The notes beneath the pieces are model-generated. The model was not told where the DNA came from, did no database searches, and saw only the letters and a list, made by a program, of their open reading frames with translations. The position numbers were made by a program, and so were the translations under genes. Source: a bacterium (GTDB taxonomy: Bacteria > Patescibacteriota > Microgenomatia > UBA1406 > GWC2-37-13). Taken from it: a stretch of DNA of 32,184 nt. Every line of letters begins with the position of its first letter. The first letter of the stretch is position 1. The stretch lies in assembly GCA_021789865.1 (NCBI GenBank), contig JAJYIX010000005.1, positions 1-32,184 on the forward strand, in the 5' to 3' direction. This document shows positions 23,628 through 23,740 of the stretch, piece by piece.

Positions 23628-23693
23628 ATGAAAACACGAAAAAATATTATCGTCAGCATTATTCTCGTCCCTTCCCAGGGCGGATGTTGCTGA
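23628..23693 (+). CDS. Ile/Val/Leu-rich leader peptide MKTRKNIIVSIILVPSQGGCC (putative ilv attenuator leader)
   Basis: 21-codon ORF with 4 Ile, 2 Val and 1 Leu in an 8-residue run, ending 22 nt before the terminator hairpin. Confidence 0.78.
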   Translation: MKTRKNIIVSIILVPSQGGCC

Positions 23694-23740
23694 TGATTTA
23701 AAAAATCAAAAGAAACCCCGCCCCGGCGGGGATTTTTTTT
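23653..23740 (+). promoter_or_regulatory. ilv transcription attenuator (regions 1-4)
   Basis: 1:2 TCAGCA 23653-23658 with TGCTGA 23688-23693 plus CCCT/AGGG 23669-23672/23677-23680; 2:3 GGGCGG 23678-23683 with CCGCCC 23718-23723; 3:4 CCCCGC 23716-23721 with GCGGGG 23726-23731. Confidence 0.7.
23716..23740 (+). terminator. Rho-independent terminator before the aminotransferase gene
   Basis: CCCCGC CCCG GCGGGG A TTTTTTTT. Confidence 0.9.

What the first reader, a model, noticed from the sequence alone, without database searches (positions are those of the whole stretch)
23628..23740. Second leader peptide with an Ile/Val/Leu run (NIIVSIILV) and attenuator before the aminotransferase/ilvB segment
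SEEN: MKTRKNIIVSIILVPSQGGCC*, with seven of eight consecutive residues Ile/Val/Leu (4 Ile, 2 Val, 1 Leu). It is followed by a terminator CCCCGC-CCCG-GCGGGG-A-T8 just upstream of the aminotransferase gene. Competing pairings: 1:2 (TCAGCA/TGCTGA plus CCCT/AGGG), 2:3 (GGGCGG 23678-23683 / CCGCCC 23718-23723), 3:4. KNOWLEDGE: enterobacterial ilv leaders (ilvGMEDA, ilvB) use multivalent BCAA codon runs. INFERENCE: this is a multivalent Ile/Val/Leu attenuator controlling the ilv half of the cluster. Two leaders matching the end products of their own downstream genes (Leu before leu genes; Ile/Val/Leu before ilv genes) is unlikely by chance.
Basis: partly seen in the sequence, partly recalled or inferred. 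Interest (0 to 1): 0.88.

Follow-up and report, generated by a model that had tools for sequence, protein, structure and literature searches.

The report
Ile/Val/Leu attenuator before ilv genes
A tiny gene rich in isoleucine, valine and leucine codons, followed by a switchable stop signal, almost certainly lets this ultra-small Patescibacteria bacterium turn on its branched-chain amino acid genes only when those amino acids run short, and the same kind of switch recurs through its relatives for at least seven amino acid pathways.

Summary
A 21-codon ORF (23628-23693, MKTRKNIIVSIILVPSQGGCC) precedes a strong terminator (23716-23740) that ends 12 nt before the aminotransferase ATG. None of 120 shuffled windows held such an arrangement. 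The window belongs to a Microgenomates/Roizmanbacteria-like Patescibacterium. Relatives across its class carry equivalent leaders before ilv genes, with different sequences but the same Ile/Val/Leu runs. leuA leaders, including the one in this window, are Leu-specific (Leu versus Ile+Val odds ratio 10). Most leaders keep a codon-run/stop-region hairpin, an antiterminator that overlaps or adjoins the stop codon, and a terminator. A folding model with a masking ribosome gives a terminator probability of 0.40 when the ribosome is stalled in the run and 0.94 when it is at the stop; spacer-shuffled controls give no difference. The predicted promoter lies so close to the leader ATG that the leader mRNA is probably leaderless. 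A peptide-blind motif scan found the same device before His, Phe/Tyr, Trp, Tyr, Ser and pyruvate-kinase genes in this family. It works as a classical ribosome-mediated attenuator, a known kind; I found no report of it in Patescibacteria. No in vivo data exist.

The parts
23586..23614 (+). predicted sigma70-type promoter of the leader transcript: TTGCAA - 17 nt - TAACAT
   Evidence: 8/12 match; aligned hexamers with a 17-nt spacer recur in the relatives; no TSS data
23628..23693 (+). leader peptide ORF MKTRKNIIVSIILVPSQGGCC (stop TGA 23691-23693); control codons IIVSIILV 23646-23669
   Evidence: conserved in relatives
23649..23697 (+). 1:2 hairpin (protector / anti-antiterminator) pairing the control-codon strand with the stop-codon region
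   Evidence: MFE structure; recurs with different sequences in relatives
23678..23683 (+). strand 2 of the antiterminator, GGGCGG, inside the last codons of the leader
23716..23740 (+). intrinsic terminator (3:4) with T8; its 5' arm CCGCCC 23718-23723 is also strand 3 of the antiterminator
23753..24937 (+). PLP aminotransferase (Aminotran_1_2), first structural gene
24934..26613 (+). ilvB, acetolactate synthase large subunit
   Evidence: TIGR00118 686 bits
26662..26904 (+). ilvN-like small ACT-type subunit (81 codons with stop)
   Evidence: read from the sequence; no family scan was run on it
26986..28041 (+). ilvC, ketol-acid reductoisomerase
   Evidence: TIGR00465
28038..29279 (+). ilvA, threonine ammonia-lyase
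   Evidence: NF006390
29283..31001 (+). ilvD, dihydroxy-acid dehydratase
   Evidence: NF002068
18933..18992 (+). companion Leu leader MMKVLFTKLNLLTPLQWAG before leuA (leuA, leuCD fusion, leuB, DUF2000 follow)
19016..19040 (+). terminator of the Leu attenuator, CCCCGCCCAGGCGGGG-A-T8

Best explanation
This is a ribosome-mediated (leader-peptide) transcription attenuator for the aminotransferase-ilvBNCAD operon. SHOWN IN SEQUENCE: promoter-like hexamers, a 21-codon ORF with an Ile/Val/Leu run, a hairpin (1:2) whose 5' strand is the control-codon run, an antiterminator strand (2) in the last codons and stop region, and a terminator (3:4) directly before the first gene, conserved across the class. 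INFERRED: RNA polymerase starts about 6 nt before the leader ATG and a ribosome loads directly on the 5' AUG. With enough charged Ile-, Val- and Leu-tRNA it runs to the stop codon, covers strand 2, the 3:4 hairpin forms and transcription stops before the aminotransferase. When a BCAA-tRNA is short, the ribosome stalls in the run, strand 1 is covered, strand 2 (GGGCGG) pairs with strand 3 (CCGCCC), the terminator cannot form and the operon is transcribed. Without translation, 1:2 forms and termination is the default. The leader before leuA works the same way but reads Leu codons.
For: Position and peptide conserved: same-genus leaders MKKNKLNIIVSIILDPPTGGCC, MKINKLVIVSIILDPKPGGCC, MKISQTTIVNVLITTPMGG, MKNKQTIIISIITTPLGG, MKNQMSIIVLITPLNCGVMK, MKTNNIIIVNILINQP, MNNNFELKKLIINIVLINRSTGG, each with a terminator before the aminotransferase/ilvE-ilvB genes. 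More in other genera, other families of the class and one other class, e.g. MKNLMSFVLIVLLINRA, MIRNQNVIIALIITR, MLRKSLILLAVLISQV, MKKQLALVLSLIINTPTGV. Specificity: 14 leuA leaders have Leu:(Ile+Val) 85:16, 29 ilv-type leaders 74:144, odds ratio 10.3, p=1e-17. Structure: the 2:3 duplex beats spacer shuffles in 33 of 42 leaders and the 1:2 duplex in 28 of 42, with unrelated sequences in different families (GGGCGG/CCGCCC, GGCGGTTG/CAACCGCC, GGGAGA/TCTCCC, CGGGTGTT/AACACCCG). Ribosome-masking model: mean P(terminator) 0.79 unmasked, 0.40 stalled in run, 0.94 at stop; window 0.64, 0.08, 0.64. Spacer-shuffled null difference 0.014 against 0.54 observed. Only 12 nt separate the T-run from the aminotransferase ATG, so no promoter fits between them.
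Against: No transcript, ribosome profiling or reporter data exist for any of these organisms. Shuffle tests treat related sequences as independent and use single-base shuffles. In about a third of the leaders the masking model shows little difference (13 of 42 differ by less than 0.3). The window promoter is only 8/12. Most structural genes here also lack a Shine-Dalgarno (20 of 25), so its absence before the leader is not by itself telling. The scan missed or could not see leaders near some ilvB genes of family f25 and most non-Microgenomates ilvB genes.
Confidence: 0.93

Rival explanations
1. The hairpin is only the constitutive terminator of the leu operon and DUF2000, and the short ORF is chance or an unrelated small hydrophobic (membrane) peptide.
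For: The terminator lies downstream of DUF2000 and an I/V/L-rich 21-mer would be hydrophobic.
Against: No room for an ilv promoter between T-run and ATG. The same arrangement stands before ilv genes in genomes with other upstream genes. leuA leaders are Leu runs broken by Asn/Asp; other sites in the family have HHH, FYFYF, YYYY and W-rich leaders, which are not typical membrane segments. Antiterminator complementarity is conserved. Zero of 120 shuffles.
Confidence: 0.03
2. The element is a tRNA- or metabolite-binding RNA (T-box, ppGpp or other riboswitch) that happens to contain an ORF.
For: Strongly structured 5' leader before ilv genes; other bacteria use T-boxes or ppGpp riboswitches at such genes (literature: PMC10272879, PMC2494555).
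Against: No Rfam family reaches its gathering score in this stretch; only sub-threshold Thr_leader (29.0 of 55 bits) and Leu_leader (27.2 of 50 bits) score below E=0.001. The RNA is about 110 nt and the conserved features are codons and complementarity, not an aptamer core.
Confidence: 0.02
3. The leader acts by translational coupling or controls mRNA stability rather than termination.
For: The leader ends about 60 nt before the aminotransferase ATG, which has no clear Shine-Dalgarno.
Against: A six-G-C-pair stem with T8 is a textbook terminator and is kept in every relative; the mutually exclusive partner of its 5' arm is conserved.
Confidence: 0.02

Closest known systems
Corynebacterium glutamicum ilvBNC leader (ilvB-II motif; PMC11857589, PMC10272879)
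   Same: Short BCAA-rich leader MTIIRLVVVTARRLP before ilvB; three hairpins (anti-antiterminator, antiterminator, terminator); transcription start one nt from the leader ATG, i.e. leaderless.
   Different: Different phylum; no sequence resemblance was tested or seen; here strand 2 lies in or next to the stop codon and the terminator abuts the first gene (the C. glutamicum leader region is 292 nt). The window has no Rfam match above threshold.
Enterobacterial ilvGMEDA, ilvB and leu leaders (RF00512 Leu_leader, RF00506 Thr_leader)
   Same: Multivalent BCAA (or Leu) codon run, competing 1:2, 2:3, 3:4 pairings, terminator before the operon; weak sub-threshold covariance hits to RF00512/RF00506.
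   Different: No Shine-Dalgarno and probably almost no 5' UTR before the leader; shorter leader; scores about half of the gathering thresholds; not homologous by any test made here.
ilvB-OMG and Leptospira ilvB motifs (described in PMC10272879)
   Same: BCAA-rich uORFs before ilvB with proposed attenuation in several phyla.
   Different: Different consensus models; no such match in the Rfam scan of this window; the passages read do not mention Patescibacteria.
Predicted BCAA leaders of Bacteroidota ilv operons (seen here)
   Same: 45 of 75 non-Patescibacteria ilvB loci, nearly all Bacteroidota, carry an I/L/V-run ORF plus terminator, e.g. MQISIIITSVVVVNVIHTSASGML in Flavobacterium; these hold the closest ilvB genes outside Patescibacteria among the loci returned.
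   Different: Leader and hairpin sequences unrelated; the GGCGG/CCGCC/GGCGG form also serves non-ilv genes in the Roizmanbacteria-like family, which speaks for independent elaboration.

Membership tests
Ribosome-mediated (leader-peptide) transcription attenuators | Short ORF whose codons over-represent the amino acids made by the downstream genes | tested here: met
   I/L/V runs before ilv genes, Leu before leuA; odds ratio 10.3
Ribosome-mediated (leader-peptide) transcription attenuators | Intrinsic terminator between leader ORF and first structural gene | tested here: met
   42 of 43 leaders by the script, the 43rd (G015) by the earlier scan
Ribosome-mediated (leader-peptide) transcription attenuators | Antiterminator mutually exclusive with the terminator, releasable by a stalled ribosome | tested here: met
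   conserved 2:3 complementarity; P(terminator) 0.40 stalled, 0.94 at stop, null difference 0.014
Ribosome-mediated (leader-peptide) transcription attenuators | Conservation of the whole arrangement in orthologous positions | tested here: met
Ribosome-mediated (leader-peptide) transcription attenuators | Leader is translated | not testable with these tools
   Needs ribosome profiling or a fusion
Ribosome-mediated (leader-peptide) transcription attenuators | Termination responds to charging of the cognate tRNAs | not testable with these tools
   Needs a reporter or in vitro transcription-translation
Rfam Leu_leader RF00512 / Thr_leader RF00506 | Score at or above the family gathering threshold | tested here: not met
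   27.2 of 50 and 29.0 of 55 bits
T-box leaders and other Rfam riboswitches | Match to the covariance model | tested here: not met
   Only a tRNA at 18818-18890 reaches a gathering score in the window; no T-box or ppGpp riboswitch among the permissive hits
Leaderless leader ORF (as in C. glutamicum ilvL) | Transcription start at or within a few nt of the leader ATG | tested here: inconclusive
   Predicted -10 hexamer ends a median 10 nt before ATG in 43 leaders (13 nt in the window), so a predicted 5' UTR of about 0-6 nt; no TSS data

The most novel reading that the evidence does not exclude
Leader-peptide attenuation with (near-)leaderless leader ORFs is a major mode of amino-acid-responsive regulation in Microgenomates, with one reusable architecture (strand 2 at the stop codon, 3:4 terminator abutting the gene) retuned by changing the codon run. 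It would serve at least BCAA, Leu, His, Phe/Tyr, Tyr, Trp and Ser, including in genomes without a detected ilvB, where BCAA leaders precede uncharacterised ligases and other large proteins that may serve amino acid acquisition from the host.
Probability: 0.6. Interest if true: 0.75.

Novelty: new member of a known kind. Interest (0 to 1): 0.6.

Why it matters
How Patescibacteria (CPR) with genomes near 1 Mb regulate metabolism is almost unknown, and most cannot be cultured. This element can be read from DNA alone. Its leader peptide names the amino acid that is sensed, so the attenuators become an annotation tool: in this family the leaders agree with the annotated function wherever it can be named (His leaders before hisS, histidine ammonia-lyase and a histidine-racemase-like gene; Phe/Tyr leaders before DAHP synthase). 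They can therefore suggest amino acid roles for unknown genes. It also implies transcription-translation coupling and leaderless initiation on the unusual CPR ribosome.

Tried and rejected
T-box, ppGpp riboswitch and other Rfam classes: no match. Chance ORF: rejected by 0 of 120 shuffles and by conservation. Histidine attenuators near hisD in the class: none within 1.5 kb, though His leaders turned up elsewhere. Phylum-wide ilvB scan: only 1 of 10 further ilvB loci showed a leader (G442), so spread outside Microgenomates is not shown. The GGCGG form is rare outside the family: 16 of 245 phylum genomes match, several clearly coding or background. The analogous GGAGA form was too strict (5 of 142). 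MAFFT alignments of the whole leader misalign the hairpins, so no covariance model was built and pairings were tested per sequence instead. My first reading of minus-strand relatives used unoriented loci and was redone. No paper in the library couples Patescibacteria, CPR or Microgenomates with attenuation by leader peptides.

Full report
WHAT IS THERE. The window is one contig (G000:C16) of a 1.07-Mb genome. Its nearest named relatives for ilvB are Candidatus Roizmanbacteria GW2011_GWA2_35_19 (66%) and another Patescibacteria MAG, so it is a Microgenomates/Roizmanbacteria-like Patescibacterium. The gene order is leuA, a leuCD fusion, leuB, DUF2000, then [leader], aminotransferase, ilvB, a small ilvN-like gene, ilvC, ilvA, ilvD and a RidA-like gene. 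The finding's coordinates are exact: ORF 23628-23693, control run IIVSIILV, GGGCGG 23678-23683, CCGCCC 23718-23723, terminator 23716-23731 with T8 to 23740. A promoter-like TTGCAA-17-TAACAT at 23586-23614 ends 13 nt before the ATG. Only 12 nt lie between the T-run and the aminotransferase ATG.

IS IT MORE THAN CHANCE. In the whole window, both strands, only this site has an ATG-ORF with at least 7 of 8 I/L/V followed by a strong T-tailed hairpin; 120 dinucleotide-preserving shuffles gave none. The leader RNA folds 4.4 SD better than shuffles.

CONSERVATION. Of 20 genomes in the genus, the eight with close ilvB homologues (G000, G001, G005, G010, G015, G016, G017, G019) all carry an I/L/V leader plus terminator before the aminotransferase or ilvE that precedes ilvB. 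In the family, 13 further genomes have one. In other families of the class (f5, f18) leaders such as MLRKSLILLAVLISQV and MIRNQNVIIALIITR occur, and one genome of another class has MKKQLALVLSLIINTPTGV. leuA has its own leader: the window's MMKVLFTKLNLLTPLQWAG, and MIKNLSLNLLLNLTNLNRWGR, MNSKNLLNLLLLTV, MCKFTLLNLNELLLLGEAF and others. Across 43 leaders, Leu versus Ile+Val is 85:16 before leuA and 74:144 before ilv-type genes, odds ratio 10.3, p=1e-17. These sequences are related, so the p-value is nominal, but the contrast runs through several families.

STRUCTURE AND MECHANISM. For 42 leaders a terminator was called automatically; the median 5' edge is 33 nt after the stop codon. Strand 2 lies in the last codons or just after the stop, and its complementarity to the terminator 5' arm beats shuffled spacers (p<0.05) in 33 of 42; the 1:2 pairing does so in 28 of 42. 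The partners differ between lineages (GGGCGG/CCGCCC, GGCGGTTG/CAACCGCC, GGGAGA/TCTCCC, CGGGTGTT/AACACCCG), i.e. complementarity is kept while sequence changes. Masking the RNA as a ribosome would gives a mean terminator probability of 0.79 with no ribosome, 0.40 when stalled in the run and 0.94 at the stop (window 0.64, 0.08, 0.64). With shuffled spacers the stop-minus-stall difference collapses from 0.54 to 0.014. This is the behaviour of a classical attenuator, including default termination without translation in most members. It is a thermodynamic model, not kinetics; 13 of 42 members show a difference below 0.3.

LEADERLESS START. In 43 leaders the best -35/-10 pair scores 9.5 against 7.1 in shuffles, the -10 hexamer ends a median 10 nt (IQR 8-12) before the ATG, and none has a Shine-Dalgarno-like motif. 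A start site 6-7 nt after the -10 would give a 5' UTR of 0-6 nt. C. glutamicum ilvBNC, an experimentally studied attenuator, starts one nt from its leader ATG (PMC11857589), so this is precedented. Inference: only transcripts started at this promoter would support leader translation; read-through from the leu operon should be terminated by default.

BEYOND ilv. A peptide-blind scan for GGCGG-N15..45-CCGCC-N1..10-GGCGG-N3-TTTT gave more than 80 listed matches in 45 of 73 family genomes, against a single match of the reversed control pattern. Among 72 distinct sites, 70 have an ATG-ORF of 13-40 codons ending within 25 nt of strand 2, and leader and gene agree wherever the gene can be named: FYFYF-type before DAHP synthase in eight genomes including this one (G000:C61, MKQNTLTINYFYFYFTHLWRDTL) and before a transaldolase/FSA family gene in two; HHRH before hisS; HH before histidine ammonia-lyase; HHH before a gene whose best NCBIfam match is histidine racemase CntK (below cutoff, E=2.5e-21); YYYW before a tryptophanase/tyrosine phenol-lyase family gene; WQNW..W before a TrpB-like gene; Ser-rich before a SerB-like phosphatase; Leu before leuA; Ile/Val/Leu before ilvE, the class I aminotransferase and, in G017, pyruvate kinase. 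This matching was assessed after the fact and no control for the ORF calls was run, but I found no contradiction among the named amino-acid genes. Outside the family the GGCGG form is rare; other families use other arm sequences.

KNOWN OR NEW. It works like the enterobacterial and corynebacterial ilv/leu leaders and meets every sequence-testable defining feature of leader-peptide attenuators. It is not a member of the Rfam Leu_leader or Thr_leader families (below threshold). Narunsky et al. (PMC10272879) already argue that uORF attenuation of ilvB is common across bacteria, and I see I/L/V-run ORFs plus terminators in 45 of 75 mostly Bacteroidota ilvB loci. So the kind is known. What seems unreported, within the library searched, is its presence and extent in Patescibacteria.

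VERDICT. Observation confirmed, interpretation supported, function in vivo untested.

Noticed in passing
18933-19040: The first Leu leader (MMKVLFTKLNLLTPLQWAG) before leuA is a companion attenuator with the same CCCCGCC..GGCGGGG-A-T8 terminator; a tRNA-Ala(GGC) gene lies just upstream at 18818-18891.
   Followed up: yes
G000:C61:47815-47876 (L257): The same genome has an aromatic attenuator: leader MKQNTLTINYFYFYFTHLWRDTL before a DAHP synthase; equivalent leaders in seven other family genomes.
   Followed up: yes
G000:C34:11188-11238 (L256): Fourth GGCGG-type site in this genome, leader MKITFIRISLFNRN, before a 675-aa protein with an N-terminal NUDIX domain; the sensed amino acid is not obvious.
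   Followed up: no
L137:12734-12802 (G017): A BCAA leader (MKNQVLSIVVLITPLTAVSCNN) stands before a pyruvate kinase gene, next to the ilv attenuator; pyruvate is the BCAA precursor.
   Followed up: partly
L237, L263: HHH leaders precede DapF-like proteins; L237 best matches histidine racemase CntK in NCBIfam (E=2.5e-21, below the curated cutoff). Leader codons and protein family point to the same amino acid.
   Followed up: partly
L249, L273, L275 (593 aa; 23 homologues): A Pfam-less family behind BCAA leaders folds confidently (pLDDT 90) like YbdK and gamma-glutamylcysteine synthetase (Foldseek E 2e-7, about 12% identity); candidate amino acid ligase induced by BCAA shortage.
   Followed up: partly
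L226, L227, L230, L246, L253, L259, L267, L272, L276, L281: Many Ile/Val/Leu/Phe leaders precede large proteins without any significant Pfam domain, several in genomes without a detected ilvB; they may be amino acid acquisition or unknown metabolic genes.
   Followed up: no
L035-L110 (Bacteroidota ilv loci): 45 of 75 loci carry an I/L/V-run ORF plus terminator on the gene strand, e.g. MQISIIITSVVVVNVIHTSASGML in Flavobacterium: likely BCAA attenuators in Bacteroidota.
   Followed up: partly
23132-23569: A DUF2000 gene (PF09391) sits between leuB and the ilv leader in several relatives (83-85% identical, more than the neighbouring enzymes).
   Followed up: no
20209-22074: leuC and leuD are fused into one 621-aa ORF with the small-subunit domain first.
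   Followed up: no
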